Below are positions 10,452 through 38,228 of a stretch of 64,000 nt of DNA, one piece after another. Every line of letters starts with the position of its first letter. Within the stretch, counting starts at the first letter, position 1. This stretch comes from Verrucomicrobia bacterium Tous-C9LFEB (lineage in GTDB: Bacteria > Verrucomicrobiota > Verrucomicrobiia > Methylacidiphilales > UBA1321). The stretch covers positions 62,001 through 126,000 of the forward strand of contig NEUU01000009.1 in NCBI GenBank assembly GCA_002304345.1. Reading direction: 5' to 3'. The position numbers were made by a program, and so were the translations under genes. Below the pieces are notes generated by a model, which had not been told where the DNA came from, did not search any database, and saw nothing but the letters and a program-made list of their open reading frames with translations.

Positions 10452-12011
10452 TTATTTGATGATACGTAGGAGCGAAGGATAATCTACTTTGGCGTTATGT
10501 CGTCTATCGACTGGTATATTTTTCAGAGGAATCAGACGGTCAATGTGTGCCCATTTAAGCGAGTGAAGGAGAGTATCACGTTCTGCGGTGGTAGGAACTT
10601 GTGAATACTCTACAGCTAGGAAGCGTTGGTTATCTTTTCCAAGAAAAGCGGAGCGTCTGACAAATGGATAGGTCTGAGCCACACATTCGACTGTGAACGG
10701 GTAGAGCGTACCTCGAGAATCTTCCACGCGAGCTGCGCATCGACCAAGCAGCCAGAGCCGTCCACTTTCATCAAGGTAACCGGCGTCCCCGGTTCGGTGC
10801 CAGGTCTTGTCATCCACCTTAAACTTGGTTTCGGAGTCACCTTGTCCGTTGAGGTATCCTTTTAGGACGTGCTCTCCTGTAACGCAAATTTCACCGTGCT
10901 GCCCTAAGGGAACTCGTTTTTTCTCAAACTCGGATACGGTCAACTGTCCCAGCGGCTGCCCCCATTGGTCATGCAAGATGGCAACTTCAATCTGCGGCAC
11001 GGGCTGTCCAACGAGTAGCCCTTTGCCACTACGCATGGCCTTCAGATCATCAGAGCTGATTTGCTTCCAATCGATATGCGAGATGGGTTCAGCTTCGGTC
11101 GAGCCGTAGACGGCCACAACATTGGCCTGAGGAGCCGCCTTCTGGATTTTCTCTAGGAGCGAGGGAAAAATGGGAGCGCCGCCAGTGTAGATATTTTGAA
11201 ATGACAGCAATGAACTTGTCTCATTTTGAGGAGCGGAGAGCAGGCGCTCATAGAAAGCAGGCGACCCTTCGCTACGCGTTGGGCGGTAACGCTCAATCTG
11301 TCGGGCGACACAACGTGAATCGATGAGGCCCGGGCGAGACATGTCCGCATCAGGCAGGATGCTGGTGACACCCGATGCTAAATTGGCCAGAACGAAGATG
11401 GGTAAGGTAGCGAGGTCACTCTCCCCTGGTTTCAAATCAATGGCCTCTGACAGAGCCTGATGTTGGGCAATGAGAAAACCATGTGTGCGCATGGCGGCTT
11501 TGGGTTTTCCAGTGCTTCCGCTCGTGAAGGTGATTAATGCAGGTGTATCGGTTTGTGGTGTAGAAATTGTTGCTGGAAGACTTCCAACTCCGGCTGGGCG
11601 TTTGGGATCACTGGAGATCCAGAAATGGAGAGGTATGTGACGCAGTGCCGGTGACGCTAGCCGCAGTAAGTGCGCTTTCCACGTTCCCAGAAAAGCGCGC
11701 GGCCGCTGAATCTGGCAACAATCGTTAATGTGCTTTAATCCTGCTGACGGGTCCAAGAATACCGCCGTGGCTCCTAGACGGAAAATGCCCAGCAGGCAGA
11801 CGTAAAGTGAAATCGACATCGGGACGAAAACCAAAACAGTTTCGGCGGGCCGCACTCCATTCTGATAGAGTCGTTTGGCAAATGCGCTCGAAAGAACATC
11901 GAGTTCACGATATGTGAGTTCTCGGTGAACTCCATTCGGAGATTCGATTAGCGCCGGTTGATCTGGCATGGCCGCGACTCGTTGCTGAATGATGTCCGGG
12001 ATCGTAATCAT
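10452..12011 (-). CDS. AMP-forming acyl/aryl ligase (ANL superfamily)
   Basis: A 519-residue adenylating enzyme. The P-loop-like motif TFTSGSTGKPKA lies at residues 161-172, the A5-type motif YGSTEAEP near residue 290, and the A7-type region WHRTGDAGYLDESGRLWLLG near residue 410. Such enzymes activate a carboxylic acid as an acyl-AMP and usually pass it to CoA or another acceptor. The overall look is closest to long-chain acyl-CoA synthetase/OleC-like ligases, but a beta-lactone synthetase role is not shown. It is the last gene of the 12-gene operon and overlaps the upstream gene by 4 bp. It probably activates an acid joined to the pathway's lipid product. Confidence 0.85.
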   Translation of the reverse strand: MITIPDIIQQRVAAMPDQPALIESPNGVHRELTYRELDVLSSAFAKRLYQNGVRPAETVLVFVPMSISLYVCLLGIFRLGATAVFLDPSAGLKHINDCCQIQRPRAFLGTWKAHLLRLASPALRHIPLHFWISSDPKRPAGVGSLPATISTPQTDTPALITFTSGSTGKPKAAMRTHGFLIAQHQALSEAIDLKPGESDLATLPIFVLANLASGVTSILPDADMSRPGLIDSRCVARQIERYRPTRSEGSPAFYERLLSAPQNETSSLLSFQNIYTGGAPIFPSLLEKIQKAAPQANVVAVYGSTEAEPISHIDWKQISSDDLKAMRSGKGLLVGQPVPQIEVAILHDQWGQPLGQLTVSEFEKKRVPLGQHGEICVTGEHVLKGYLNGQGDSETKFKVDDKTWHRTGDAGYLDESGRLWLLGRCAARVEDSRGTLYPFTVECVAQTYPFVRRSAFLGKDNQRFLAVEYSQVPTTAERDTLLHSLKWAHIDRLIPLKNIPVDRRHNAKVDYPSLLRIIK

Positions 12012-13000
12012 AACGGGCGAGCGAAAAGTGTATAACGGCGCATGACGTCGCCGAAGAACTGAGAGAGATGCTGAACTTTACCGTTTCCCTGATATTCAAG
12101 GGCGTGAATGCAACGGCCGAAACCAGCTTTACGACTTTGGTAATGAAATTCGTCTACTAGCAGCGCTCCCAGTCCTCCATATGACTTGCCCGGCAGAACG
12201 GCAAGAGTTTTGATTATGGTTGTATCGACTTTCTGCCCTCGTTGAGCCTGAGCGAGATCAGGAATGCCAAAGAGATAGCCCACGAGCTTACCTTCCTTTT
12301 TAGCGAGAAAAACAAGTTCAGGAACGATATGTGGACGGATAGGTTCGTAAAGCGTATGGAAATGATCCAGTGATAAGGGAGTGTAGAGAAAATTGTGAGT
12401 GAATGCGGTTGATGAGACTTGGTGAATCTCTTGAAGCTCTTCATCAAAACGATCCAGTTGGAGTGATTGGATGGAGATGCCACTTTTCTCCAGTCGTTCG
12501 CGGACACGATTCACGCGCGGGTCGCGCTTTTGCAAATCCGTGATAAGTGACGAGGAGTATTCGGCAAGAGAAGTAAATCCACATTGGAGAAACCATTGTG
12601 GCCATTCGGAGGGATTCTGTGGCTCGAGAAAGAAAGGAGATTCGCTTCCCGTTTCTGTTACGAAGCGGTATTTTCGCCAGGTGTTTCCATCCATCGGTCC
12701 AATCGCCATCGTACACTTTTGATCTTTCAGGCGGCCGCAGAGGTGGGTAAGTAATTGCTGAGTTGCTTCGAATGAGGAAGAGGCAAAGTGTCCGATGATG
12801 CCCAATCGTTGGTTCGGCAATGCAGGTACTTGATTCCACCAGATAGACCCACGAGCTAGGGAGTTTCCGAGGGCGTCTACCAACTCCCAATGTTCGTCAC
12901 AAGCATGCTGCTGCAACGTAAGGTCATGTAGAGCATCAAAATGGAGCGACGGCGGCAGTGCTTCGATTTTTTCACTCGGTAAGAAGCGTATCAATTTCAT
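12008..13000 (-). CDS. GNAT-like acyltransferase
   Basis: About 330 residues starting at MKLIRFLPSEKIEALP. This start was chosen because its ATG overlaps the upstream stop as ATGA (13000-12997); the frame stays open for 22 more codons upstream. The C-terminal third resembles a GNAT fold: ELVFLAKKEGKLVGYLFGIP as beta4, then TLAVLPGKSYGGLGALLVDE in the position of the acetyl-CoA pyrophosphate loop. The N-terminal half may be a second, degenerate GNAT-like domain. It probably transfers an acyl group from CoA or a carrier to an amine or alcohol of the operon's product. It overlaps the ligase gene by 4 bp, hinting at a ligase-transferase pair. Specificity is unknown. Confidence 0.6.
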   Translation of the reverse strand: MKLIRFLPSEKIEALPPSLHFDALHDLTLQQHACDEHWELVDALGNSLARGSIWWNQVPALPNQRLGIIGHFASSSFEATQQLLTHLCGRLKDQKCTMAIGPMDGNTWRKYRFVTETGSESPFFLEPQNPSEWPQWFLQCGFTSLAEYSSSLITDLQKRDPRVNRVRERLEKSGISIQSLQLDRFDEELQEIHQVSSTAFTHNFLYTPLSLDHFHTLYEPIRPHIVPELVFLAKKEGKLVGYLFGIPDLAQAQRGQKVDTTIIKTLAVLPGKSYGGLGALLVDEFHYQSRKAGFGRCIHALEYQGNGKVQHLSQFFGDVMRRYTLFARPL

Positions 13001-14325
13001 CGGGTGAACAGGATAAATAATCCAATTGAGGCTGCCAACGGCGCAATAGCTGACTCGACAAACCATTGACGCGATTGGCGATCAGGCGGAGGTGTGATAG
13101 GTGACCAATATTTAGTAAACGCCAGTACTGAAGTAAGAACTGCCAGCGCCAATAAGGCTATCGAAATGGCCCAACTGCGTATCGGGATGAAGCAAAGAAG
13201 AGGCGGAGCAAACAGGAGTACCGGAACGAGCCACGCCATGAAAATGACGCGCGTGGCTGAAAAGTTTGGCCGGACAACCTGCAAGCGTGCGCTGATGATA
13301 TTGCCAGCATGGCAGGCGACGCAAAGGTGGAATGGTAACCATCCAACGTCATTACCGGTATTCAGCGCCACGAATAAGTAAAGGTAAGCGCCGCCGATCA
13401 CACGGGTGACGGCATGAAGGTTCTGGATGGGGCGAGTAACTGGATCAAATCCGGGCAATAGGAGATAAAGGGCGAATAAAAGAAGTGGACTTATCAGAAA
13501 AGTCCATCCACCGAAGGCCCATAGTCCGTATCCCGCCAACGCGGCAGCCATGAGGGCACTGTCGCTGAGGGTTGTTCGTTTACGCCAATAGAGCGAGAGA
13601 ATGGCGAGGCAGGTGAGCACGACAAGTCGAAGGCCCAGATGAAAAGCATCCATCGACCAATAAAGCTTGAGTAGATAGAGGGTCCCGATGGGAATGAAGA
13701 GATTGTCTAGGCCCCGCCAGGAAATGGCTTCAAGCAGCATGATAAGAAAGCCAATCGTCAGACCGATAAGTAAACATTCAGCCCGACCAATCGATGTGAA
13801 TAAAAGAAGCGGAATATGCGCCGAGAGAAAGGCGGCACTGAAAAAAGCGATGGACCCTTCGGCGCTTTTTTCACCTTCGTCAGTTTGATAGCGGGAAATG
13901 CCATACCGTAGACCCACTAATGCTCCGACGGAATCGGCCACAGTTAGGACAAGAATCGGAATGAAGTAGAGAATCCAATTACTTTGTGCGAGCCAGAACG
14001 TCGTTGCGACGGCTATCGGAAAACAGATTTCGCCAAGCGAGTTGCGCTCCACGCCCCCCAGTACACCGCCTAATTGATTCTTTAGGTGCGGAACAAGTCG
14101 GACTGAGAGAAGAACCGCAGTGATGGCAATGGTCAATACAAGGACGGGCCAGAGTTGCGTGAAAATCCACGGAAAACTCAAGCAAATGAGGCCTGTAATA
14201 ATATGTGCGGCTTTGCGTGAGAATTCAGGGTGGAGTTGGTAGCGATGTTGCGCCGCCCGCAGACCTCCGAGCATGGCTCCAAGAATGATCAATATCCCGA
14301 CGATAGCGAACAAAGGAGGAATCAT
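12997..14325 (-). CDS. phytol/dolichol-kinase-like membrane protein with an extra C-terminal membrane domain
   Basis: A 442-residue polytopic membrane protein. The N-terminal 225 residues look like the phytol kinase/dolichol kinase/CDP-archaeol synthase superfamily: HPEFSRKAAHIITGL (residues 37-51), VADSVGALVG, GEKSAEGSIAFF and RGLDNLFIP. The C-terminal 200 residues form more membrane helices starting LSDSALMAAALAGYG, faintly like the DUF92 family that includes plant phytyl-phosphate kinase VTE6. If that holds, one protein would carry both steps from prenol to prenyl diphosphate; this is tentative. A second, shorter family member lies at 20352-21179. ATGA overlaps join it to both neighbours. 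Confidence 0.7.
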   Translation of the reverse strand: MIPPLFAIVGILIILGAMLGGLRAAQHRYQLHPEFSRKAAHIITGLICLSFPWIFTQLWPVLVLTIAITAVLLSVRLVPHLKNQLGGVLGGVERNSLGEICFPIAVATTFWLAQSNWILYFIPILVLTVADSVGALVGLRYGISRYQTDEGEKSAEGSIAFFSAAFLSAHIPLLLFTSIGRAECLLIGLTIGFLIMLLEAISWRGLDNLFIPIGTLYLLKLYWSMDAFHLGLRLVVLTCLAILSLYWRKRTTLSDSALMAAALAGYGLWAFGGWTFLISPLLLFALYLLLPGFDPVTRPIQNLHAVTRVIGGAYLYLFVALNTGNDVGWLPFHLCVACHAGNIISARLQVVRPNFSATRVIFMAWLVPVLLFAPPLLCFIPIRSWAISIALLALAVLTSVLAFTKYWSPITPPPDRQSRQWFVESAIAPLAASIGLFILFTR

Positions 14326-15428
14326 CCGACGACCTCCTCGACATGAAACGCGGAATAGAAGAAGGCTTTATCGACTTGGTGTAACCTTGCGCCCAGATCG
14401 TCAATGGGACGTATTAGATGATGTAAATCGGCAGGCACGCAGCGTGGTGCCAGCATATTCCAATAGGCTAGGCGACTCCCTTTTTTGGCTGTTTGTCCGA
14501 TTTTCTCAAGGATCGCATGAGTGTTAGCCTCAGACATATACTCGAATATATCGCTCAGGTTGAACTTGGAGATAAGGTCAGGGGCGCCCTCCAAGTAGGA
14601 CTCGATAGATGATTCGTGCCATTCGAGTCGATCCAGATTGCGCCGGATGGATTCGTAATTCTCCTCCCTCAGATAGTGAGGCAGCACCGTCCGATAAGTA
14701 CCCAATAAGATCCATTGGAGATAGGGGTTTTTATCCGGTTCGAGTTCGATGAGAGCGTGGCGAAGTCGCGTAAGAATTCGATCCGATACAGTTCCTTCCA
14801 CATAGCGAAAGAAACTTGGGTCGCGCCCCTTCCATCCCATTACTGTGCGGGAGAAAAAGAGGTGAAAGAGCATTCGCCAGCGGCTCGAGTCAATAGCCTC
14901 ATGATAAAATCGGGAGCGATCCTCTTTGCTCTTTGGGCTGAGCAGTGCGTCCACCTTTTTGCGATTCATCACCAATGGTAGAATGAATCGACGAAAGACA
15001 CTGAAGTAATGTTCAAACTTTCCGACATGGCCAATTCCTTGAGCAATCCATTCAGGATGCGAATCCCAAAAAGCACGAGTGCCTTCACAAAGGTTGATGC
15101 GGCATTTTTGATAATGATCAGATCTATTCTCGCTATGCTTGATACCGATCAATTCGAGAATTGTTGGATATTCCAACTGCCGAAACGCTGCGACACGCAA
15201 CTCCATGCAGGCAAGCTGAGCGGGACTCAAATCCAAGGCAATCACTCGTGCTGGACTACGAGAAATCAGGGAAAGGACATTATCACCAGCAGAAGCGATA
15301 GAGAGACACACATCTGTCGGCTGAATATCCAGCGCGGCGAGCAAGATGTCGGCATCCTCCCAAACCTGTGCATAGCGGATCAAATTGAAGTCAGCGTGGG
15401 TGGCTGCTTCTGCAAGCTCAGCAGACAT
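14322..15428 (-). CDS. DUF3419 family protein, BtaA-like aminocarboxypropyl transferase
   Basis: A 368-residue protein with the DUF3419 signature YAQVWED (residues 19-25) and a SAM-binding-like segment LSIASAGDNVLSL (about 42-54). The best-known member, BtaA, transfers the 3-amino-3-carboxypropyl group of SAM to diacylglycerol in betaine-lipid synthesis. No BtaB-like N-methyltransferase is seen nearby, so a betaine lipid is not implied; the acceptor could be a prenyl or other lipid made by this operon. It overlaps both neighbours (11 bp and 4 bp). Family assignment is strong; the reaction here is inferred. Confidence 0.8.
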   Translation of the reverse strand: MSAELAEAATHADFNLIRYAQVWEDADILLAALDIQPTDVCLSIASAGDNVLSLISRSPARVIALDLSPAQLACMELRVAAFRQLEYPTILELIGIKHSENRSDHYQKCRINLCEGTRAFWDSHPEWIAQGIGHVGKFEHYFSVFRRFILPLVMNRKKVDALLSPKSKEDRSRFYHEAIDSSRWRMLFHLFFSRTVMGWKGRDPSFFRYVEGTVSDRILTRLRHALIELEPDKNPYLQWILLGTYRTVLPHYLREENYESIRRNLDRLEWHESSIESYLEGAPDLISKFNLSDIFEYMSEANTHAILEKIGQTAKKGSRLAYWNMLAPRCVPADLHHLIRPIDDLGARLHQVDKAFFYSAFHVEEVVG

Positions 15429-18024
15429 GAGTGGACTTCTCCTCCGATGCCTTGTTGATCAAAGTGATGAGTCCCGTTGAGCCATCCATTTCCACTTCAT
15501 CACCACTGGCAAGCCATGAGGTGAGTCCTTTCACGGACACAATGGCGGGAATGCCCATTTCCCGGGCTACAATCGCAGAGTGCGAGAGCAGGCTTCCGTA
15601 TTCCACTAGCAACCCAGCGGCAGAGGGAAAGAGCATGATCCACCCCGGATCTGTCCTGGGAGCGACAAGTATTTCACCAACTTCCATCTGGGCTTGGCGC
15701 GGATCAAGAATCACACGTACGCGACCTCTGACAATTCCGGGGCAGCAACCAATGCCTTTGAGTGTGGTGCCTTCTGTTGCCGCAGTTTTCATAGTGATGG
15801 GAACTGAACAGGTATTGGCGACATATACGGTGCCGCGAGTGATAAAACGGTCGACTGGAGAGGTCGTCCGATAGGTTTCGAACTCATTCTGGCGCAGTGC
15901 TACTAAACCCCTCAGATCTGTGGTCACGGCAGTTCCTTCCACAAATCCGAGAATCTCTTCCACAGTAAGAAAGAAGATGTCGCGTGGTTCTTTTAGTACT
16001 CCATCGGCATGGAATCGTTTTCCAATTTCGACGAAGATGCGTCGGGCGCAGCCAAATACACGCGTGCGTTCGAAGCGTAAATTCTCGCGATCTTTAACCC
16101 GCGCTCGCGCACGTTTCAATACGAACCGAAAGATCAGGCGACGAATGGGATGTTTTTGGAGTGCTTGAGCAGCTTTGGCTTCTGCTTGCGCTCTTAAGGT
16201 TGGGCTGGTGGCCTTGGAATAGGCGAGCAACTCTGGGCGGGTAGCAAGTCGCCCGATGGAACGGAAAAGCATCAATGGATCATCGTGAAGCGTGGCGCTT
16301 TCGAGTTTTAATTCTTCAAGGCAGCGCTCGCCGAATTTATCCAGATAGGATTGGACGAGTACCTGGAAACGGGGATGTGACGGCAGTGTTTGCTGGATAT
16401 CATAGAGAGAACCTTCGTGCAGGATTTGGATCAACTCCGTATGACCAGCCGCCAGTCGCGCCATTTCCTGAATGCGGAGCGCAGGCTCGGCACTAATAAT
16501 ACCGCCTTGCCCTGAGACGAGATCATTTTGCAAAGTGGCATTTCTGTCACCGCACCAGCGGTCGCACAGCGAGCGCAAGATCCCGTAGTAAATCATCGCG
16601 AAGAAATCGTTGACCAACGGGGCATCCCAGTGGGTGAGTAATTGCCCTTGGATTGTGCGAAAAGAATGAGTGAGCTCGTCGGTCCGCATGGAACTCAGTG
16701 GCAGTTCCTTGGCATTTAATACGGCATCGAGTCGTTGATAGAAGTTGCGAATTTTTTCGGGCAAAAGCCAGTGATTGCGAATGAGTCCGCAAATGGTTCC
16801 GATCAATTCTATATAATCATGCCAGCCAGCCGGAGGTGTTTTGAATTCCGCAAGAACATCGTCCGGCAATGGTTCCTTAACGCCCATCATCTGTTCCATG
16901 AATTTCCGGTTGATGGAGAATCCAGGTAACATCGACAAGACGCGATACCAGCTCAGTAAATTGTAATAAACACGTCCTTGAAGCAGGCCCAGCATGCGCG
17001 AAAAGGTAGTTTGATTGGCGTCGATTCGTCGTTGTGGTACTCCGAGGATGGCAACGAACTGGCGATACACCCCTTCGTAATTTTGTCGAGCGAAGCTGAA
17101 GGTTAACGGCGTGGTGACACCACTATAACTCTCCGAAATATTGCTGTTGTCCCAAAGATTAAAAGCGGCATCAGGATCGGGAAGATTTTTAAGCGAGGTG
17201 ATCGGACGCGATTGAAGCAGGAATAACCGGTCATCTTGAATGGCCCATTCGATGTCTTGTGGAGTGCCAAAATGAGCTTCACAAAGTCGGGCCAGTTGAG
17301 CAACTTTTATGGCTTGTTCCTCAGTAAGGCTGGCATTGCCGTACGATTCATTGGAGAGATGGTGCGAGATCAACCGATCTTGACGGTCGATATGGTAGGT
17401 GTCGCTATTGGCATCGCCACTCACAAGTCGATCTCCCAGACCATGCACAGCCGCCACGACGGCAATACCCCGGCGACCCGTGACGGGATCTACACTAAAT
17501 GCCACGCCTGCGGCATCGGCTGGAACCATTGCTTGGATGATGATAGCTGGGGCAGGCGGAGGCAGAGAGAGCTTCGCTTGGCGACGATAGGTGAAGATGC
17601 GCTCACTAAATCCTGATCGCCAAACGTCGGCGATCCGCTGCGGAAGCTCTTCCCAAGTCACATTCAAATAGCTCTCGAGTTGACCGGCAAAAGAGTGCTC
17701 GTGTCCGTCTTCATCTAAAGCGGAAGAGCGGACGGCGAGGAGCGCGTCGCCAAGGAGGGCTTTCAACTTAGGCAACTCCCCATTGAGCCACTCCTGATTA
17801 GGGGAAATATCTTTTAGTAAGACGGCGACCTCTGCGGCGTTGGAAACGCGGGATAACTCACTTTTTTGAGTGAGAGTTAACGAAACATCAAAGGTACCTG
17901 GCAATATGACGCGCCACTCGGGTATCGGGGAACCAGCCAATGACAAAGCACCCAGAGCGCGAGCTTTACCCCCGACAGGTAGATTGGCGAAATCCGAAGC
18001 GCGATAGGAGATTATCCAGCTCAT
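15418..18024 (-). CDS. PEP-synthase-like enzyme (ATP-grasp plus swivelling phospho-His domain)
   Basis: About 868 residues from MSWIISYRASDF; this ATG overlaps the upstream stop as ATGA at 18024-18021, so the 20-codon upstream extension is discarded. The N-terminal 300 residues match the PEP synthase/PPDK ATP-binding domain (VGGKARALGALS, AVRSSALDEDG, SFAGQLESYLNV, GVAFSVDPVTGRRG, IEWAIQDDRLFLLQSRP). The last 90 residues are the PEP-utilising mobile domain with its catalytic His (LLSHSAIVAREMGIPAIV). The PEP synthase TIM barrel is absent; a helical middle region takes its place, as in rifampin phosphotransferase. It probably uses ATP and a phospho-His to phosphorylate an unknown alcohol or acid of the pathway. 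Confidence 0.85.
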   Translation of the reverse strand: MSWIISYRASDFANLPVGGKARALGALSLAGSPIPEWRVILPGTFDVSLTLTQKSELSRVSNAAEVAVLLKDISPNQEWLNGELPKLKALLGDALLAVRSSALDEDGHEHSFAGQLESYLNVTWEELPQRIADVWRSGFSERIFTYRRQAKLSLPPPAPAIIIQAMVPADAAGVAFSVDPVTGRRGIAVVAAVHGLGDRLVSGDANSDTYHIDRQDRLISHHLSNESYGNASLTEEQAIKVAQLARLCEAHFGTPQDIEWAIQDDRLFLLQSRPITSLKNLPDPDAAFNLWDNSNISESYSGVTTPLTFSFARQNYEGVYRQFVAILGVPQRRIDANQTTFSRMLGLLQGRVYYNLLSWYRVLSMLPGFSINRKFMEQMMGVKEPLPDDVLAEFKTPPAGWHDYIELIGTICGLIRNHWLLPEKIRNFYQRLDAVLNAKELPLSSMRTDELTHSFRTIQGQLLTHWDAPLVNDFFAMIYYGILRSLCDRWCGDRNATLQNDLVSGQGGIISAEPALRIQEMARLAAGHTELIQILHEGSLYDIQQTLPSHPRFQVLVQSYLDKFGERCLEELKLESATLHDDPLMLFRSIGRLATRPELLAYSKATSPTLRAQAEAKAAQALQKHPIRRLIFRFVLKRARARVKDRENLRFERTRVFGCARRIFVEIGKRFHADGVLKEPRDIFFLTVEEILGFVEGTAVTTDLRGLVALRQNEFETYRTTSPVDRFITRGTVYVANTCSVPITMKTAATEGTTLKGIGCCPGIVRGRVRVILDPRQAQMEVGEILVAPRTDPGWIMLFPSAAGLLVEYGSLLSHSAIVAREMGIPAIVSVKGLTSWLASGDEVEMDGSTGLITLINKASEEKSTHVC

Positions 18025-18977
18025 GACAGGCACCTCAATAGTAGCGGAATGATTCCGAGTGTGAGGTAGAGTGCCAAGGTCCAAATGCCGGAGAAGAGTT
18101 CAAAGCGTTTGCCTTGCCCGGGTGTTGGATTCTTAAGAAATGCGCAACCGAGCACCACTGCGGCGCAGGCCAAGACTGTCACCAACATAGTCATGGGAAT
18201 AAGAAATCCGATTTGATTAGCTGCGCAGATCGCATTAATCGCTGTCAGGACGATAACAATCCACCAACCCCTAACTGCCGTGGCGCTTCCCCATAAGGCC
18301 GAGTATGTGGGTACTCCCGGTTCTTCGTCTTTCGGAGAACGGATTTTGCGACCAATCTCAATGATGAATCCACTGAAGAAGCTAACAGCGACAAACCAGA
18401 GGATTCCATGGGGAGGCTCGTTTTGTTTTGGCAGCCAATCGCAGGCCGTCGCATAGAAATCGATCAGCGGCATGATGAACATATGCGTCCACATGTACGT
18501 GAATGGATGCGCCTTGAGCCAATCGCGGACGAAGAACTCCCGACTCATCAGCGTGAGGTAAATCCAGGTGACCAGAAGCGGCCAGACCAGATGGACATTG
18601 AGCCAAAGCGCCATCACGAGTTGCAGGGCTCCGGTAATTATCCAGAGGACTGCCAATTCGCGTAGCGTGATTAATCCTCGTGGAACAGGACGATAGGGGC
18701 GGAACCGGGAGTCTTCCTCAAAATCCTTGAATTCATCGGCGAGTCGCAGATGCAGAAACGAGATGAACGAAGAGAAAAAAGCGACGGCAAATACTGTCAA
18801 GTGGGGAAGCGACGTTTGGCCCTGCAGCAATGTGGAAAAGCAGACAGCAGAAGAACTAAAAGCGAGGATGAGTGGTCCATGGGCGAATATGGGAAAGCGC
18901 TCGCGCTGATAGATCCACCACTTTTGAAAGAAAGTGGGGCGAATCGTCTGCTGCTCAGTGTTCCCGGTACAACCCAT
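18021..18977 (-). CDS. UbiA family prenyltransferase
   Basis: A 318-residue integral membrane protein with about eight hydrophobic segments. The first Asp-rich motif is LADEFKDFEED (D81, D85, D89), followed by RFRPYRPVPRGLI, both typical of UbiA enzymes, which bind prenyl diphosphate through Mg2+. The second motif region is GRKIRSPKDEEPGVPTYS. These enzymes prenylate quinone rings, chlorophyllide, glycerol phosphate or carotenoids. The acceptor cannot be read off. Its place between HMG-CoA reductase and the PEP-synthase-like gene, with phytol-kinase-like genes in the same operon, supports an isoprenoid substrate. Confidence 0.88.
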   Translation of the reverse strand: MGCTGNTEQQTIRPTFFQKWWIYQRERFPIFAHGPLILAFSSSAVCFSTLLQGQTSLPHLTVFAVAFFSSFISFLHLRLADEFKDFEEDSRFRPYRPVPRGLITLRELAVLWIITGALQLVMALWLNVHLVWPLLVTWIYLTLMSREFFVRDWLKAHPFTYMWTHMFIMPLIDFYATACDWLPKQNEPPHGILWFVAVSFFSGFIIEIGRKIRSPKDEEPGVPTYSALWGSATAVRGWWIVIVLTAINAICAANQIGFLIPMTMLVTVLACAAVVLGCAFLKNPTPGQGKRFELFSGIWTLALYLTLGIIPLLLRCLS

Positions 18978-19004
18978 AGCGTTAAGAATAAAGGAAGATC
19001 GTTC

Positions 19005-20291
19005 TTAGTCGATGGTTGCTGTCGGCTTGCGACGTGCCAGTTTTTTGTGAGCGCGGGAGAAGTGTCCCGCCGTGACTGCACCAATAATGGAGAGTTCCCC
19101 GGCAAGGGAGAGAGCGGCGGCGACCTCGGCCAAAGCCTGTGCATGTCCGTTACCGCGTAAGCCGAGAATATCGAGACAAGCCGCTTGAGCTGGCAGGCTT
19201 GTACCTCCACCCACGGTTCCGACAATCAAATTGGGCAGTGTGACTGAGGCATAGAGGCTACCATCCTCTTGTTTTTCAAATCGGGTAATACCCACAGCCG
19301 CTTCAGAAACGCAGGCAGCGTCCTGGCCCGTAGCGATGAACAGCGCAGCAAGGCCGTTTGCGTAATGGCCTTGAGCACCGATAGTTCCGCTCTGAACGCC
19401 TCCGAGAACCGTCATGGCCCAATATTCCGATATGGCGGACACATCGGTATGGAGTCGCTTGCGGATCAAGTGGGCGGGAATGATGACTTCGGCGGAGACT
19501 TTCTTGCCTCGCACAGAGAGGAAGGACTGGGAGCTGGCTTTTTTGTCTCCCGAAAGATTGGCCTCGACGAAAATCTTGCGTACTTTGACCGGGGAATGCT
19601 GTCGTATGAATTCGCAGATTGCTTCTGTGGCGATGGTAACCATATTTTGCCCAGCAGCGTCACCGGTCAGGAATTCAAAGATCAGATAGACGTGATTGCC
19701 CTCAATCGCCACCCGCATGTCGGAAAGCTTTCCATGGCGAGTTGTCGTTGCCGCTTTAGTGGCGAAAGCGTCTTTTTGACCAATGGCCCAAGCGACGAAT
19801 TCTCCTGCTTGAGCAAGGGTTGTGAAAATGAACCCGGGCGCCCGACTCACTCCCTCTGCCAGAGTCACAGCGCTGCAGCCCCCACACTCGCTGATAAGGC
19901 GTGCCCCTCGATGATATGAGGCGACGAGGGCGGCTTCAGTCGTAGCGAGTGGGACATAATAATCGCCACTGGCGTAGGTGCCATTGATTCGTAGGGGCCC
20001 TGCGACTCCTACCGGAACTTGAACTGTGCCGATCAGATTCTCGATATTACGAGCATAGTGAGCTAATGATCTGATTGAAGGGGCTGGAGCCAGATGAGCC
20101 TTACTGGAAGAAGCATGGGAAAGGGCTTTCCAACGCGCATCGATTGCCTTTGTCGATGCAATGGTGGCTCCGGGAATTCGGGTCGGCAGCGGGTGATGCC
20201 TCGATTCCAGCTTGCTGCGGATTTCCTTAACGGAAGTCGAGCCCAGCAATCCTTGCAGGTGTGAGGCGGCTCCCTGAGAACTCGTAGGCAT
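19005..20291 (-). CDS. class I-like hydroxymethylglutaryl-CoA reductase
   Basis: A 428-residue soluble HMG-CoA reductase, which makes mevalonate from HMG-CoA with NADPH. Signature stretches are ENLIGTVQVPVGVAGPL (84-100), LATTEAALVAS with catalytic E119, FLTGDAAGQNMVT (207-219), SGDKK with catalytic K250 or K251, GQDAACVSE with D324, and GHFSRAHKKLAR with H410. Length and motifs fit class I. No other mevalonate-pathway gene lies in the window, so it may boost a host pathway or act in a specialised one. It is embedded in the 12-gene operon, 27 bp before the UbiA gene. Confidence 0.92.
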   Translation of the reverse strand: MPTSSQGAASHLQGLLGSTSVKEIRSKLESRHHPLPTRIPGATIASTKAIDARWKALSHASSSKAHLAPAPSIRSLAHYARNIENLIGTVQVPVGVAGPLRINGTYASGDYYVPLATTEAALVASYHRGARLISECGGCSAVTLAEGVSRAPGFIFTTLAQAGEFVAWAIGQKDAFATKAATTTRHGKLSDMRVAIEGNHVYLIFEFLTGDAAGQNMVTIATEAICEFIRQHSPVKVRKIFVEANLSGDKKASSQSFLSVRGKKVSAEVIIPAHLIRKRLHTDVSAISEYWAMTVLGGVQSGTIGAQGHYANGLAALFIATGQDAACVSEAAVGITRFEKQEDGSLYASVTLPNLIVGTVGGGTSLPAQAACLDILGLRGNGHAQALAEVAAALSLAGELSIIGAVTAGHFSRAHKKLARRKPTATID

Positions 20292-20351
20292 GGTGTTAAC
20301 TTATGAGCTCTGGCGCGACCTTAGCCAGTCGAAAACACTATCACATCAAAG

Positions 20352-21179
20352 TCACAGAACCTCGGAGTTGGAGCAAAGCGGATAGGCGCGTAGGGCTGGC
20401 AAGGGTTGATTTGAGATGGTGGGCGAAGGTACCGCCTGGGAGCGAAGCTCTTTTACAATCCATGCGGCAATCGCGGTTACCACAAGAATATTGGAAAACA
20501 GCAGGCTCCAGACATTCAGAGTCAAGCCAAGTTGAAAGACTCCGTAAGTGGCAATTGGAATGCAGAGATTGTCGGACCCACGAATAAACAAAGCTTCAAC
20601 GATCATTCCAGATAGGGCGATGGAGAGCGAAAGAAGTAGGGTGTAGGAGACCGGGTATTGCTCAGACTGTGCGAGCAGAAAACCGGCGATCAGAAAGGAG
20701 CTGATAGAGAAAGCGATCGAACCTTCGAGCGTCTTATCATTACCCCAGCATTTGAATTTACCTTTCAGAACACCAATCAGACCGGCAGAGGCGTCAGCCA
20801 GCGAGAGAGCTAAAACAGCCATCACGTAACCGGCCTTGTGTTCATGCGCAATGAGGAATGTAGCAAGGGCGCCTGCTACAAAATAATAATGTCCTGCAGT
20901 TTCCCGTTGTACGGCATTCAAGGCCACACTCCAGCGTTTGAGGAATGGGATATAATAAAGAGCCCATAAAAGAGATGCTCCGACAACAGCCATGCAGATC
21001 CCTTGCCACGTTTCCGCGAAAAGCCAGGGAAGTGGAAGTAACGCTAGTCCCATGGTGACATGAACCAGCTTGCGAACGATTTCCGGATGCATCGAAAAGC
21101 GGCGTAGTAACCACTCCGCGCAGATGATAATGCCCGCAAAGGTAATTGAGATGAAAATGAGTCCTAGAATAAACGACAT
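20352..21179 (-). CDS. phytol/dolichol-kinase-like membrane protein
   Basis: A 275-residue polytopic membrane protein of the same superfamily as the N-terminal part of the 12997-14325 product: HPEIVRKLVHVTMGLALL (residues 32-49), SLADASAGLIGVLKGK, DKTLEGSIAFS and RGSDNLCIPIATYG. The acidic DA/DS and K-x-x-E-G-S motifs are those that bind CTP or another nucleotide triphosphate and Mg2+ in this superfamily. It would phosphorylate a prenol or activate a prenyl phosphate. It lies 7 bp after the stop of one gene and 60 bp before the HMG-CoA reductase. Two such genes in one operon is unusual. Confidence 0.78.
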   Translation of the reverse strand: MSFILGLIFISITFAGIIICAEWLLRRFSMHPEIVRKLVHVTMGLALLPLPWLFAETWQGICMAVVGASLLWALYYIPFLKRWSVALNAVQRETAGHYYFVAGALATFLIAHEHKAGYVMAVLALSLADASAGLIGVLKGKFKCWGNDKTLEGSIAFSISSFLIAGFLLAQSEQYPVSYTLLLSLSIALSGMIVEALFIRGSDNLCIPIATYGVFQLGLTLNVWSLLFSNILVVTAIAAWIVKELRSQAVPSPTISNQPLPALRAYPLCSNSEVL

Positions 21180-21186
21180 GATGAGA

Positions 21187-21609
21187 TTAAGTGGCTTGAT
21201 CTAAATATTCAAATTGCTTGGAAATAAACTCTTTACTCCAACCTGCGCGTTGCAGGCTTTCGATAATCTCGATGCGGCTATTACCACGACCTAGCTGTTT
21301 CCGAATGTAATCACGGGTAGCAGCGACCACGCGATCTTGTTTATTCACGGTACGATAAGAATCGATTTGAGGTTTTGATGTCGTTGATTGAGTGGGAGTA
21401 TCAGAGGCGGATTCATCTTCAATTTTTGGCCACCAAAAGGTGGCGAGCCAACCCAAGGCATAAGCAAGTGGTATCCAAATGATCAGAGCAAGGCCGCAGG
21501 AGAGAATTATGGAGCAAATTACCGTCTCAGCTGCCCCTCGGTTGATAAAGCAGTACGCTCCAATGATAAGCGCTCCGAAGAAGGTTCTAGCGTAAAAACG
21601 AGATGACAT
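21187..21609 (-). CDS. small membrane protein with UBA-like C-terminal helices (first of two)
   Basis: About 140 residues from the ATG at 21609 (MSSRFYARTF); an upstream TTG at 21633 is less likely. There are two N-terminal hydrophobic segments, then a polar linker rich in Ser/Thr, then a helical tail reading RKQLGRGNSRIEIIESLQRA with GWSKEFISKQFEYL. That tail resembles the UBA/SHOCT-like motifs at the C-termini of many small bacterial and archaeal membrane proteins. The next gene upstream has the same architecture, so the two are distant paralogues. Function unknown; a scaffold or partner of the membrane enzymes is possible. Confidence 0.6.
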   Translation of the reverse strand: MSSRFYARTFFGALIIGAYCFINRGAAETVICSIILSCGLALIIWIPLAYALGWLATFWWPKIEDESASDTPTQSTTSKPQIDSYRTVNKQDRVVAATRDYIRKQLGRGNSRIEIIESLQRAGWSKEFISKQFEYLDQAT

Positions 21610-21633
21610 ATCTAGAAATATGAAAGTGAGCAA

Positions 21634-22140
21634 TCAGAAATGTGCTGCCAACAAGGCTTGTTCCACTTCGGACTTACACCATCCACTATTGAGTAGTTGT
21701 TCCTTGATCTCAGTATCCTTGAATCCCTTATCGCGGCAATCAAACACATACTGTTGCACTGAGGCGGTTGCATTGGCTTGACTAGATTCGTTCGACCTCT
21801 CAATTACAGATGAAATTGCGGCATGAGATGTACCCACAGGAATCCACCAGAAGGTAAGTAGTAATCCGACTATGTACGAAGCAACTACGCCAGGAACGGC
21901 AAACATAGCTGTAGGTACAGCAATGACGCAGAGGCTGACAATGCCTGCGACTGGACTAGCCCAACGAGCAATTTGATGCGTGATTAAAAAAACGACAGGA
22001 AAAGGGGCTGCAAATAGCAATCCGCAAGCAAGCCCAAGTGATTGATCTCGCTCAGGAATCGTAGCCAGAACAAAGTAAACAAATCCTGCGATGATTGCGA
22101 TGGACCCAACCAGGCAGCGGAATAGAAAATTGACGGCCAT
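21634..22140 (-). CDS. small membrane protein with UBA-like C-terminal helices (second of two)
   Basis: A 168-residue protein with four hydrophobic segments followed by a polar linker and a tail reading VFDCRDKGFKDTEIKEQLLN then SGWCKSEVEQALLAAHF, matching the pattern of the neighbouring 21187-21609 product (helix, GW, helix). Its ATG overlaps the stop of the lycopene-cyclase-domain gene as TAATG at 22142-22138, indicating translational coupling. I do not recognise the family. The shared tail suggests a common binding partner or oligomerisation. Confidence 0.65.
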   Translation of the reverse strand: MAVNFLFRCLVGSIAIIAGFVYFVLATIPERDQSLGLACGLLFAAPFPVVFLITHQIARWASPVAGIVSLCVIAVPTAMFAVPGVVASYIVGLLLTFWWIPVGTSHAAISSVIERSNESSQANATASVQQYVFDCRDKGFKDTEIKEQLLNSGWCKSEVEQALLAAHF

Positions 22141-23195
22141 TAGGCATCCAATCTTTTGTTGCTGAACGCAATTTCCGTCACGCGAATCGTGGCGATGATG
22201 AGCGCCATATACATTGGTATGGCAAACACCACCTCGATTGGAACGGAGGTTCCCACAAGTTTGACGCCGGTAAAGTTAGCCTGCGCGCTTGGGCCGTAGA
22301 CCCTATAGCCGTGTGCGATGAACCATGCCTCAACAGGCGTAGCAACAATTGCCATAGCCGCGAGATAGAGCAGAAAGCGATGAAATAAATCCCAGTGGAT
22401 GAAGCGGCGGTCGATAAGATTTACCACCAGCCAAATGCCCACGATCCATAATCCGGTCATGATGATTGTAATGTCGTGGTAGACGTAGGACCAACTCGGA
22501 AAGCCGACATTATCGACCATGGGTTCGATCATGAGTTCGAATAGAAAGACGGCCGCGAAGGTAATCAGGAATGTACGGAACCAAGGTGTATTTTTGACCG
22601 GGACAACAGGAACGCCATCGAGCACTAGACCCCAGTATTTGTAGAAACCGATGACCAGCGTCATAAAAACGGGCACGTAGTAGAGTGCTTCAATCGGTAC
22701 GCCCAGAACGCTCACTCCGCAGACAGACTTGAGCACTTCCGGGGAATAAGTACGGATGCCAATATTGACAGTGAGGATTTGAATGGCAAATACGACTGGA
22801 GCAAGAATAAGCAGGTAGAGGCCAAAGCGATTGAACGGGGATGCCTTGCTGACGAAATGGTCAATAGCTGTGACGACGGTGATGATGAGCGTGGTCCAGC
22901 CCAGCGTCAGAATCCAACTCTGATCCTGATACAGGTACGCCCACGAACCCATGTGGTAGTTATGCCACATCGGCGCAGTGAACATTTCAAAAATGAAAAC
23001 GCCAATGGCAAGAACGCCAAAGCGCGCGGGGTAATTTTTGACCCATTTACGGAACAGAAAAAAGGCAACAATGGCCGCGATGACGATAAATACTTCAAAA
23101 CCAATGATGGCAGGAGTCGGTGTTTTGTCGAAAACTCCTCCAGGGTAGTTTCCAGTGAACCAGCGTTGAATGAAGAGTGGTTGTTGTTGGGGCAT
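22140..23195 (-). CDS. lycopene-cyclase-domain membrane protein with internal duplication
   Basis: A 351-residue polytopic membrane protein resembling the heterodimeric-type lycopene cyclase (CrtYc/CrtYd) domain. Two copies of a motif are visible: FEMFTAPMWHNYHMGSWAYL with YQDQSWILTLGW, and FELMIEPMVDNVGFPSWSYV with YHDITIIMTGLW, about 140 residues apart. Each half ends with VEAWFIAHGYRVYG-like or VPIEALYYVPVF-like segments. In known carotenoid cyclases two such halves work together; here they are fused. No phytoene synthase or desaturase is in the window, so the substrate may be a different polyprenoid. It is the second gene of the operon, 19 bp after the radical SAM gene. Confidence 0.7.
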   Translation of the reverse strand: MPQQQPLFIQRWFTGNYPGGVFDKTPTPAIIGFEVFIVIAAIVAFFLFRKWVKNYPARFGVLAIGVFIFEMFTAPMWHNYHMGSWAYLYQDQSWILTLGWTTLIITVVTAIDHFVSKASPFNRFGLYLLILAPVVFAIQILTVNIGIRTYSPEVLKSVCGVSVLGVPIEALYYVPVFMTLVIGFYKYWGLVLDGVPVVPVKNTPWFRTFLITFAAVFLFELMIEPMVDNVGFPSWSYVYHDITIIMTGLWIVGIWLVVNLIDRRFIHWDLFHRFLLYLAAMAIVATPVEAWFIAHGYRVYGPSAQANFTGVKLVGTSVPIEVVFAIPMYMALIIATIRVTEIAFSNKRLDA

Positions 23196-23214
23196 AAAAT
23201 AGTTTTGGTTCTAT

Positions 23215-24411
23215 TTAGCGAAAAGAGTAGTGTCCGTTGCCATGGCTGGAGCAAGTCGTAGAAGTGGAGTCGGCAGGTGAGTCCATTCGTTCTGTGATGA
23301 ACGCGGAGTCTTTGACTTTGCATCCGCCCCACTTGGCTTCCTTATAAGCGGCATGGGAGGTCATCTTATCCCAGACTTGATAGAGGGGTTCTTCGAGCAC
23401 ATTACCGAACGGGCGATTATTAAAATCGCAGGAAGTCATATCCCCGTATGGGGTAATGTAAAAATAGCTCGTGCCACAGGAACAACCCACGCTCCGGTGG
23501 CTGGTGGAATAGGCATGGAGGAGAACTCCGGGGTAATTCCAGTCGGCGTTGTATTTCACGCTGGCGCGGATCATCTCCTCTTTCCACTCATTATTATCCA
23601 TGAGGTTCGGGTGATCCTTGGAGCGCCCCGTTGGCATTGCATCAAATACGACCAGTTCGTGAGCGCCCAGAGATTTGGTGAACTCCACCATGCGATCAAA
23701 TTCACCTGCCGCAAATCCCTCCGGGGTAATGCAGGTAGATATACCGACGGACATGCCCGTTTTTAGAGAGGCTTCAATACCACGTACGGCTCGATCGTAT
23801 AGTCCCTTGAGCCCACGAATTTCATCATGTTTGTCGCGGTCGGCGGAATCGATACTGACGTAGATTCCATCCAGACCGGCTTCTCTTAGTTTCGGAGCCA
23901 TTTCAGCGAGGGGCCAGCCATTGGTGAAGAGAGTGGTGATCGAGGTGTTCTTGTCCACCGAGCGAATGATTTCGAGAATCTCGGGGCGTTTCAGTGGCTC
24001 ACCTCCGACAATATTGATAATCGAAACACCGAGTTCCTGCGCATCGCGAATGACCTTACGGCATTGGTCCAAGGACATCACCGTACGGGTCTTGTCGTCA
24101 ATTGCCTCGTAAAAGCTGCAATGAGAACAAGTGGCATTGCACACGTCCGTGACGGCGAAGCTCATCAGATTCGGCATATTCTTATTCTGAATCCCACGAT
24201 AGAGCGTGCGTGCGAACATATTCGCCGCCGGCTTGCTGTAGAGCGCGGGAGTGGAAAGGGAATAAACCGGATAACCATCCCTGAAATGAATCACCTTACT
24301 GTGATTCAGGTAGATTTTGAACATCTGGTCGCTGAAGTCGGCTCCAAACCCAAGAGCCCGTCGCGACATGAATAGCTTCGTGCGAAATCTTCCCCACCAT
24401 TTGTTCATCAC
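23215..24411 (-). CDS. radical SAM enzyme with C-terminal Cys region
   Basis: A 398-residue protein with the radical SAM cluster motif CNATCSHC (C91, C95, C98), then NIVGGEPLKRPEI as the GGE motif and SIDSADRDKHDEIRG further on. A C-terminal Cys-containing region, CSCGTSYFYITPYGDMTSCDF followed by GGCKVKDSAFITERM, looks like a SPASM- or twitch-type auxiliary cluster. It is the promoter-proximal gene of the operon. HpnH and tetraether-forming radical SAM enzymes act on membrane lipids, so C-C bond formation or alkylation of a lipid is conceivable, but this protein cannot be assigned to either from sequence alone. Confidence 0.82.
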   Translation of the reverse strand: MMNKWWGRFRTKLFMSRRALGFGADFSDQMFKIYLNHSKVIHFRDGYPVYSLSTPALYSKPAANMFARTLYRGIQNKNMPNLMSFAVTDVCNATCSHCSFYEAIDDKTRTVMSLDQCRKVIRDAQELGVSIINIVGGEPLKRPEILEIIRSVDKNTSITTLFTNGWPLAEMAPKLREAGLDGIYVSIDSADRDKHDEIRGLKGLYDRAVRGIEASLKTGMSVGISTCITPEGFAAGEFDRMVEFTKSLGAHELVVFDAMPTGRSKDHPNLMDNNEWKEEMIRASVKYNADWNYPGVLLHAYSTSHRSVGCSCGTSYFYITPYGDMTSCDFNNRPFGNVLEEPLYQVWDKMTSHAAYKEAKWGGCKVKDSAFITERMDSPADSTSTTCSSHGNGHYSFR

Positions 24412-33051: not shown

Positions 33052-33062
33052 TCCCGTATCAA

Positions 33063-38086: not shown

Positions 38087-38228
38087 TAAGCACGAATTCC
38101 CCGAAGTCCAATTCCCACCGGGATTCTTTCTGACAATTCTTCTGACAGTTTGCCGGAAAAATCCACTTTTGTCAGCGCATCTGCTTGGGAATGAATGCCT
38201 TAAGAAATGGCGGACAGGGTGGGATTTG
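38087..38228. repeat. right attachment-site repeat (attR), overlapping tRNA-Ser
   Basis: About 142 bp matching 10087-10229. The last 21 bp (38208-38228) are the 3' end of the intact tRNA-Ser gene with its CCA. The repeat includes TTCTGACA at 38128 and 38140, 12 bp apart. The recombinase start codon is about 90 bp to its left. Confidence 0.85.

What the first reader, a model, noticed from the sequence alone, without database searches (positions are those of the whole stretch)
10452..24411. Twelve-gene, translationally coupled operon with the parts of an undescribed isoprenoid-lipid pathway
Twelve leftward genes run with overlaps or very short gaps (ATGA or TAATG junctions at 12997, 14322, 18021 and 22140). 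They combine a radical SAM enzyme, a duplicated lycopene-cyclase-domain protein, two UBA-tailed membrane proteins, two phytol/dolichol-kinase-like proteins, HMG-CoA reductase, a UbiA prenyltransferase, a PEP-synthase-like phosphotransferase, a DUF3419/BtaA-like transferase, a GNAT-like protein and an AMP-forming ligase. Each family handles polyprenyl or lipid chemistry or group transfer, but I know of no described pathway with this set. A plausible logic: mevalonate supply, prenol or prenyl phosphate activation, prenyl transfer by UbiA, then addition of an aminocarboxypropyl and an acyl group. It is carried on a mobile island.
Basis: partly seen in the sequence, partly recalled or inferred. 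Interest (0 to 1): 0.88.

Follow-up and report, generated by a model that had tools for sequence, protein, structure and literature searches.

The report
Widespread undescribed amino-lipid biosynthesis operon
Seven genes that recur side by side in bacteria of eight phyla, here joined by five extra genes, likely build an undescribed hybrid amino lipid, and their "HMG-CoA reductase" is predicted to make a fatty alcohol rather than mevalonate, so a widespread lipid pathway may have been overlooked.

Summary
The twelve-gene leftward operon is real. It splits into seven core genes (HMGR-like, UbiA, PEP-synthase-like, DUF3419, DK1, tandem GNAT, AMP ligase) and five accessory ones. Of the 80 loci kept from a DUF3419 search, 79 hold another core gene, 39 all seven and 35 the window's order, across eight phyla by record name: probably one shared pathway. 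The mevalonate idea fails: HMG-CoA synthase is in 1 of 49 searched carriers, MVD over its cut-off in 0 of 50, IspH (MEP) in 49 of 50. The 'HMGR' keeps the catalytic residues but shows the three pocket changes of FcrA, a published fatty acyl-CoA reductase (PMC11948995), in 58 of 58 rows, against 0 of 15 ordinary HMGRs of the same phylum. A formyltransferase stands in the GNAT's place in two loci, which points to N-acylation of an amine. I propose a hybrid lipid of fatty alcohol, prenyl chain and N-acylated aminocarboxypropyl group; product and step order are inferred. Ten paper searches gave no account of this gene set.

The parts
10452..12011 (-). AMP-forming acyl ligase (core gene 7), FadD/OleC-like
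   Evidence: PF00501 192 bits; best NCBIfam PRK09274 382 bits, below its 478 cut-off; OleC models 233-237 bits, below cut-offs; conserved TSG, YGSTE, TGD and C-terminal lysine motifs
12008..12997 (-). tandem GNAT acyltransferase (core gene 6), likely N-acyltransferase
12997..14325 (-).
14322..15428 (-). DUF3419 (BtaA-family) aminocarboxypropyl transferase, predicted (core gene 4)
   Evidence: PF11899 243 bits; DUF3419 is the BtaA family (PMC6642084, passages)
15418..18024 (-). PEP-synthase-like phosphotransferase of rifampin-phosphotransferase layout (core gene 3)
   Evidence: PF01326 and C-terminal PF00391, no PEP-binding TIM-barrel domain listed; best solved relatives 5fbs and 5hv1 (E 1e-61), alignments cover residues 96-288 and 490-856
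18021..18977 (-). UbiA-family prenyltransferase (core gene 2)
   Evidence: PF01040 52.5 bits; only PDB hit DGGGP synthase 6m31, E 2e-4; conserved DExKDxxxD and RKxRxxxDEE-like motifs
19005..20291 (-). HMGR-like enzyme, predicted fatty acyl-CoA reductase of the FcrA type (core gene 1)
   Evidence: PF00368 385 bits; FcrA pocket signature in 58 of 58 cluster-type rows; separate clade 100/99
20352..21179 (-). DK2, shorter second dolichol-kinase-like protein (accessory)
   Evidence: no Pfam hit; DK1 matches the DK2 gene at 31% over 204 residues (L001 row); only the window's own ORF was labelled DK2
21187..21633 (-). UBA1, small membrane protein (accessory)
   Evidence: 27-28% similar proteins next to the cyclase-domain gene in L088, L091 and L092
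21634..22140 (-). UBA2, small membrane protein (accessory)
   Evidence: four hydrophobic windows; one weak partial match in L091, on the UBA1-like gene
22140..23195 (-). CYC, duplicated lycopene-cyclase-domain membrane protein (accessory)
   Evidence: PF18916 16.5 bits, under cut-off; internal repeat 35%, E 4e-20; 421 proteins at E <= 0.001, window's own included
23215..24411 (-). radical SAM/SPASM enzyme (accessory), first gene of the operon
   Evidence: PF04055, PF13186; next to CYC in all four genomes where CYC was found

Best explanation
The operon likely makes an undescribed hybrid amino lipid: its HMGR-like enzyme is predicted to reduce a long-chain acyl-CoA to a fatty alcohol, which the kinase-like and UbiA enzymes would join with a prenyl chain, while the DUF3419 enzyme would add an aminocarboxypropyl group that the GNAT and AMP ligase would N-acylate. 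Shown here: the seven core genes travel together in loci of eight phyla (by record name); nearly all searched carriers lack HMG-CoA synthase and MVD and have IspH; the reductase has the residues of FcrA and not those of HMGR; a formyltransferase stands in place of the GNAT in two loci, and a thioester-reductase-like gene in place of the HMGR-like gene in one. Inferred: (1) FcrA-type reduction of acyl-CoA by NADPH; (2) phosphorylation of the lipid alcohol by DK1 (CTP) and a further ATP-driven activation by the rifampin-phosphotransferase-like enzyme; (3) UbiA transfer of a MEP-derived prenyl group; (4) transfer of 3-amino-3-carboxypropyl from S-adenosylmethionine to a lipid hydroxyl, as BtaA does on diacylglycerol (recalled); (5) acyl-CoA or acyl-AMP made by the ligase, N-acyl transfer by the tandem GNAT; (6) in the window, the radical SAM and cyclase-domain proteins would modify the prenyl end. 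The order of steps 2-5 is not known.
For: Co-occurrence: 79 of 80 loci have at least one other core gene, 39 of 80 all seven, 35 of 80 the same order (in two of these, L026 and L064, GNAT and ligase lie several ORFs apart from the rest), 79 of 80 all core genes on one strand. Distances between core families correlate (Spearman 0.51-0.93 over 33-58 shared rows; 0 of 200 permutations as high for each of 21 pairs). HMGR reassignment: 58 of 58 rows keep E559, R590, K691, K692, D767, H866 but have S684 to E, K735 to M/V/I/L and L862 to F; 15 of 15 ordinary HMGRs in the same phylum keep S, K, L; FcrA with such changes reduces fatty acyl-CoA and not HMG-CoA (PMC11948995, sections 18-20). Orphan status: HMG-CoA synthase 1 of 49, MVD over cut-off 0 of 50, IspH 49 of 50. 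Not wax esters: WS/DGAT over cut-off in 2 of 50 (G044, G045), neither of which has the HMGR-like gene. Replacement logic: NAD_binding_4/thioester reductase overlapping PEPS in L043 (best NCBIfam PRK07201, the profile that paper used for AcrB; 143 bits against a 549 cut-off); formyltransferase in L012 and L132, where no GNAT was found. Lipid context in single loci: MGDG-synthase-like gene after the ligase in L016, PS decarboxylase in L043.
Against: A saturated fatty alcohol is not a normal UbiA donor, so how the alkyl and prenyl parts meet is unclear; UbiA may use another donor. Seven of the 50 searched carriers have no HMGR-like gene in the held genome, and 14 loci, all named as Clostridia or Eubacteriales, have the order DUF3419-DK-GNAT-ligase-UbiA-PEPS without it nearby, so fatty alcohol is not always supplied by this enzyme. 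L010 has HMGR-like, UbiA, PEPS and DUF3419 only, in 10-kb flanks; L052 lacks DK1; L133 has neither GNAT nor formyltransferase. MVD matches under the cut-off (19-23 bits) occur in 10 of 50, and two GHMP kinase matches in the own genome were not identified. The FcrA-type enzyme also occurs alone (Vibrionaceae loci, L127). The gene correlations have no non-cluster gene as a control. The 80 loci are the best of 122 relatives found with DUF3419, so loci of more distant relatives were not seen.
Confidence: 0.45

Rival explanations
1. A secreted specialised metabolite (signal, antibiotic or metal-binding molecule) rather than a membrane lipid: the same enzymes build a prenylated, acylated amino acid of modest size.
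For: The PEP-synthase-like enzyme is related to rifampin phosphotransferase and prodigiosin ligases; cytochrome P450 beside the cluster in L034 and, by similarity to it, in L017, L018 and L026; FecCD permeases 1.1 kb upstream in L034; patchy distribution and a plasmid copy.
Against: Three core proteins are lipid-type (two membrane enzymes plus a BtaA-family enzyme); no further family, such as a transporter or regulator, was found in more than 9 of the 80 loci.
Confidence: 0.2
2. An alkyl ether lipid pathway without any prenyl chain: UbiA works on alkyl phosphate or another donor (as decaprenyl-phosphate phosphoribosyl transferase does, recalled), and FcrA alcohol gives the alkyl chain.
For: FcrA supplies a fatty alcohol, and its authors suggest ether lipids for some FcrA; the only PDB relative of UbiA found is an ether-lipid enzyme, DGGGP synthase, E 2e-4.
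Against: The cyclase-domain protein that joins the operon points to an isoprenoid end group; UbiA keeps two acidic motifs.
Confidence: 0.17
3. One reading: HMGR supplies mevalonate for an isoprenoid lipid.
For: HMG-CoA_red domain at 385 bits with all catalytic residues.
Against: No HMG-CoA synthase match in 48 of 49 carriers, no MVD over cut-off in 50 of 50, IspH in 49 of 50; HMG-binding residues changed in 58 of 58; six genomes of the phylum sample hold this type beside an ordinary HMGR.
Confidence: 0.04
4. A variant of betaine lipid (DGTS) synthesis, with the other genes as suppliers.
For: DUF3419 is the BtaA family and a DGTS marker (PMC6642084, passages).
Against: No methyltransferase family among the 12 proteins by Pfam, so no BtaB partner in the operon (rest of the genome not searched); rhizobial plasmid-borne DUF3419 proteins are 24-28% identical to the window's, against 43-60% in the 80 cluster loci.
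Confidence: 0.06

Closest known systems
FcrA fatty acyl-CoA reductase (Grossi et al. 2025, PMC11948995)
   Same: Class-I HMGR fold, same catalytic residues, same three pocket changes, found in genomes without the mevalonate pathway.
   Different: Described for wax esters and suggested for ether lipids; the abstract, sections and passages I read do not mention UbiA, DUF3419, PEP-synthase-like, GNAT or kinase partners. At 428 aa the window protein seems too short to carry the extra N-terminal Lad domain of the assayed enzymes (not tested).
BtaA/BtaB betaine lipid pathway
   Same: DUF3419 enzyme predicted to move the aminocarboxypropyl group of S-adenosylmethionine.
   Different: No methyltransferase in the operon; six other core genes have no known part in it.
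Rifampin phosphotransferase and PigC/RedH ligases
   Same: ATP-grasp domain first, phosphohistidine domain last, substrate region between.
   Different: Scores are far below the curated cut-offs (285 of 999, 328 of 1300 and 340 of 1350 bits), so no membership is claimed.
Tocopherol phytol salvage (phytol kinase plus UbiA-type transferase; recalled)
   Same: Kinase-like membrane protein with a UbiA enzyme.
   Different: No aromatic acceptor genes in the operon; reductase, DUF3419 and acylation genes are added.
Bacterial ceramide synthesis (GNAT-type acyltransferase plus acyl-CoA ligase; recalled)
   Same: Would N-acylate a lipid amine with a ligase-made acyl donor.
   Different: No serine palmitoyltransferase in the operon; not compared by sequence.

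Membership tests
FcrA (HMGR-derived fatty acyl-CoA reductase) | Catalytic Glu559, Lys691, Asp767, His866 kept | tested here: met
   58 of 58 rows including the window
FcrA (HMGR-derived fatty acyl-CoA reductase) | Ser684 to Glu, Lys735 lost (printed as Lys795 in the paper; its own Gly411 corresponds to 735), Leu862 to a bulky residue | tested here: met
   E 58/58; M/V/I/L 58/58; F 58/58; ordinary HMGRs of the phylum S, K, L 15/15. In the paper residue 735 is 'generally small', in the cluster rows it is hydrophobic
FcrA (HMGR-derived fatty acyl-CoA reductase) | Same clade as the assayed FcrA proteins | not tested
   The assayed sequences were not at hand; cluster rows form one clade 100/99 apart from 18 HMGR rows (with a long-branch warning)
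[quoted passage not shown]
   Needs an enzyme assay
Mevalonate pathway | HMG-CoA synthase and diphosphomevalonate decarboxylase in the same genome | tested here: not met
   Own genome: neither (89.7% complete). HMG-CoA synthase in 1 of 49 carriers; MVD over cut-off in 0 of 50 genomes, own included
Betaine lipid (BtaA/BtaB) pathway | DUF3419 enzyme | tested here: met
   PF11899 243 bits
Betaine lipid (BtaA/BtaB) pathway | Partner N-methyltransferase BtaB in the operon | tested here: not met
   No methyltransferase among the 12 proteins; rest of the genome not searched for it
Carotenoid cluster | Phytoene synthase or desaturase beside the cyclase-domain gene | tested here: not met
   None among the 12 proteins by Pfam
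Wax ester pathway | WS/DGAT in the genome | tested here: not met
   No match in own genome; over cut-off in 2 of 50, both without the HMGR-like gene; two more matches under the cut-off
True PEP synthase | C-terminal PEP-binding TIM-barrel domain | tested here: not met
   Only PPDK_N and PEP-utilizers found, the latter at residues 782-851 of 868

The most novel reading that the evidence does not exclude
A new class of hybrid lipid: a fatty-alcohol chain and an isoprenoid chain on one molecule with an N-acylated aminocarboxypropyl (homoserine-ether) head, made by a seven-gene pathway that has spread across eight phyla and that gives an HMGR-descended fatty acyl-CoA reductase a role outside wax esters; in some bacteria a radical SAM and a cyclase-domain enzyme finish the isoprenoid end.
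Probability: 0.35. Interest if true: 0.9.

Novelty: categorically new. Interest (0 to 1): 0.8.

Why it matters
If right, a lipid pathway present in verrucomicrobia, planctomycetes, cyanobacteria, proteobacteria, deinococci, desulfobacteria, bacteroidetes and firmicutes (including the isolates Brevibacillus laterosporus and Desulfobulbus rhabdoformis) has been missed because its genes carry misleading names: HMG-CoA reductase, PEP synthase, DUF3419. It also gives a concrete, testable role to many orphan 'HMG-CoA reductases' in genomes without a mevalonate pathway, and the replacement cases (thioester reductase, formyltransferase) predict how the products should differ between hosts.
Full report

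CORE AND ACCESSORY GENES. A search with the DUF3419 protein kept the best 80 of 122 confirmed loci; more distant relatives were not seen. Mapping the twelve proteins on these 80 loci shows seven recurrent genes: HMGR-like, UbiA, PEP-synthase-like (PEPS), DUF3419, DK1, GNAT, AMP ligase. 79 of 80 loci have at least one other core gene (L066 has none in its held stretch), 39 of 80 have all seven, 35 of 80 have the window's order (in L026 and L064 GNAT and ligase are set apart by several ORFs), and in 79 of 80 all core genes lie on one strand. Several loci are cut by contig ends. Other orders exist: GNAT-ligase first (3 loci) and DUF3419-DK-GNAT-ligase-UbiA-PEPS without an HMGR-like gene nearby (14 loci, all named as Clostridia or Eubacteriales). 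No further family occurs in more than 9 of the loci. By record names the loci span Verrucomicrobiota, Planctomycetota, Cyanobacteriota, Deinococcota, Pseudomonadota, Thermodesulfobacteriota, Bacteroidota and Bacillota; most are metagenome bins (the Bacteroidota and Deinococcota ones only bins), but records of isolates (Brevibacillus laterosporus, Desulfobulbus rhabdoformis, Rubritalea profundi, Haloferula) are among them, and a Roseinatronobacter plasmid carries the set. Pairwise distances of the seven families correlate (rho 0.51-0.93 over 33-58 shared rows, 0 of 200 permutations as high in each of 21 pairs; no non-cluster gene was used as control). PEPS-ligase (0.93) and UbiA-ligase (0.90) correlate best, the HMGR-like family least.

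THE RADICAL SAM-CYCLASE MODULE. The cyclase-domain protein (CYC) was found in 2 of 387 genomes of the host's phylum (the window's own and G182) and in 2 of 386 genomes of the phylum of G008 (G008 itself, chosen as a carrier, and G647). In all four the radical SAM gene and a UBA1-like gene sit beside it. In G182 they lie between core genes; in G647 they are followed by UbiA-PEPS-DUF3419, with no match to HMGR, DK1, GNAT or ligase in the 17.9-kb stretch; in G008 the core is on the same contig about 66 kb away. Outside these, radical SAM and CYC relatives share 15 identical longest-contig lengths over 5 kb in the two lists of 120 (counted by eye), which suggests a wider two-gene module, some of it in records named Woykebacteria or Patescibacteria. 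So the module is separate from, and sometimes joins, the core.

THE 'HMG-COA REDUCTASE' IS PROBABLY NOT ONE. Own genome: no HMG-CoA synthase and no MVD match, but IspH; two GHMP kinase matches were not identified. Carriers: HMG-CoA synthase in 1 of 49 (G012), MVD over its cut-off in 0 of 50 (own genome included; 10 of 50 have matches of 19-23 bits under it), IspH in 49 of 50. HMG-CoA_red matches occur in 43 of 50, one gene each (in G042 split over two frames); the seven others have none in the held genome. In the phylum sample 72 of 387 genomes have a match; 15 (own included) have one of 399 bits or more, all other matches have 196 bits or less, and six genomes hold both kinds. Of the 14 others of the high-scoring kind, 13 have DUF3419 nearby (the exception is L127). 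Of the lower-scoring kind 15 places were held as loci, and none shows a core gene in its 3.0-4.1-kb stretch. Alignment of 58 cluster-type rows and these 15 ordinary rows (places with pieces under 300 residues dropped): E559, R590, K691, K692, D767 and H866 are kept in all; S684 is Glu in 58 of 58 but Ser in 15 of 15; K735 is Met/Val/Ile/Leu in 58 of 58 but Lys in 15 of 15; L862 is Phe in 58 of 58 but Leu in 15 of 15. The cluster rows form one side of a branch with support 100/99 (the program warns of long branches). These are the changes described for FcrA, an HMGR relative shown by assay to reduce fatty acyl-CoA and not HMG-CoA (PMC11948995: abstract, passages and sections 10, 18, 19, 20 read). 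The paper prints Lys795, but its own residue Gly411 corresponds to 735 by the offset of its Glu360/Ser684 pair. So the reassignment is a known enzyme kind in a new setting. Wax esters are not the likely use: WS/DGAT is over cut-off in 2 of 50, both without the HMGR-like gene.

REPLACEMENTS THAT HINT AT CHEMISTRY. In L043 a NAD_binding_4 reductase overlaps PEPS where the HMGR-like gene would be; its best NCBIfam model is PRK07201 (143 bits, cut-off 549), the profile that the FcrA paper used for fatty acyl reductase AcrB. In L012 and L132, of different phyla, no GNAT was found and a Formyl_trans_N protein overlaps PEPS or the ligase. Both fit: the first gene supplies a reduced acyl chain, the GNAT acylates an amine. 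Against this, L133, close to L132, has neither (an alpha/beta hydrolase lies between UbiA and the ligase). The amine would come from the DUF3419 enzyme, whose family is that of BtaA (PMC6642084, passages). Lipid enzymes beside single loci (MGDG-synthase-like in L016, PS decarboxylase in L043) agree with a lipid product.

HOW IT MOST LIKELY WORKS. Fatty alcohol from the FcrA-type enzyme; CTP- and ATP-driven activation by DK1 and PEPS; prenyl transfer by UbiA; aminocarboxypropyl transfer by the DUF3419 enzyme; N-acylation by ligase and GNAT; in the window, work on the prenyl end by the radical SAM and CYC proteins. Only the gene association and the residue signature are shown; every reaction is inferred, and how alkyl and prenyl parts meet is open. 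I put 0.9 on the FcrA assignment, above 0.9 on one shared pathway, 0.6 on an N-acylated amino lipid and 0.45 on the whole scheme (my judgement).

NOVELTY. Ten searches of the paper library found no account of this gene set (listed under Tried and rejected); most subscription papers are not held, so this is a limited claim. Each enzyme family is known; the combination belongs to no pathway I know of, and the operon fails tests for the mevalonate, betaine-lipid, carotenoid and wax-ester systems.

Noticed in passing
L135:11968-13230, L137:9001-10281, L138:9001-10257: Vibrionaceae replicons carry an FcrA-like HMGR (56-60% identical; Asp instead of Ser684, Met instead of Lys735) with no other core match in the fetched stretches.
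   Followed up: partly
window 27593-35899: Type I restriction genes (HsdM at 34280-35899, specificity subunit at 33063-34283; the 1064-aa ORF at 27593-30787 looks like HsdR, not tested) enclose a Schlafen-AlbA_2/NB-ARC/TPR protein at 30784-33051: a defence-like stretch before the tRNA-Ser at 38208.
   Followed up: no
L127: An FcrA-type gene without any core match in the 19.9-kb stretch, in a genome (G239) that also has an ordinary HMGR match.
   Followed up: no
L012:12396-13187 and L132:17074-17814: Formyltransferase genes overlapping the core where the GNAT is missing; predicts N-formyl products.
   Followed up: partly
L008:5244-7167, L010:11362-13423: In two planctomycete loci DUF3419 is followed by a DUF2752 membrane-type protein and a TPR protein instead of DK1, GNAT and ligase (L010 has HMGR, UbiA, PEPS before it; L008 UbiA and PEPS, cut by the contig end).
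   Followed up: no
PMC11948995 section 19: The residue printed as Lys795 appears to be Lys735 by the paper's own numbering.
   Followed up: yes
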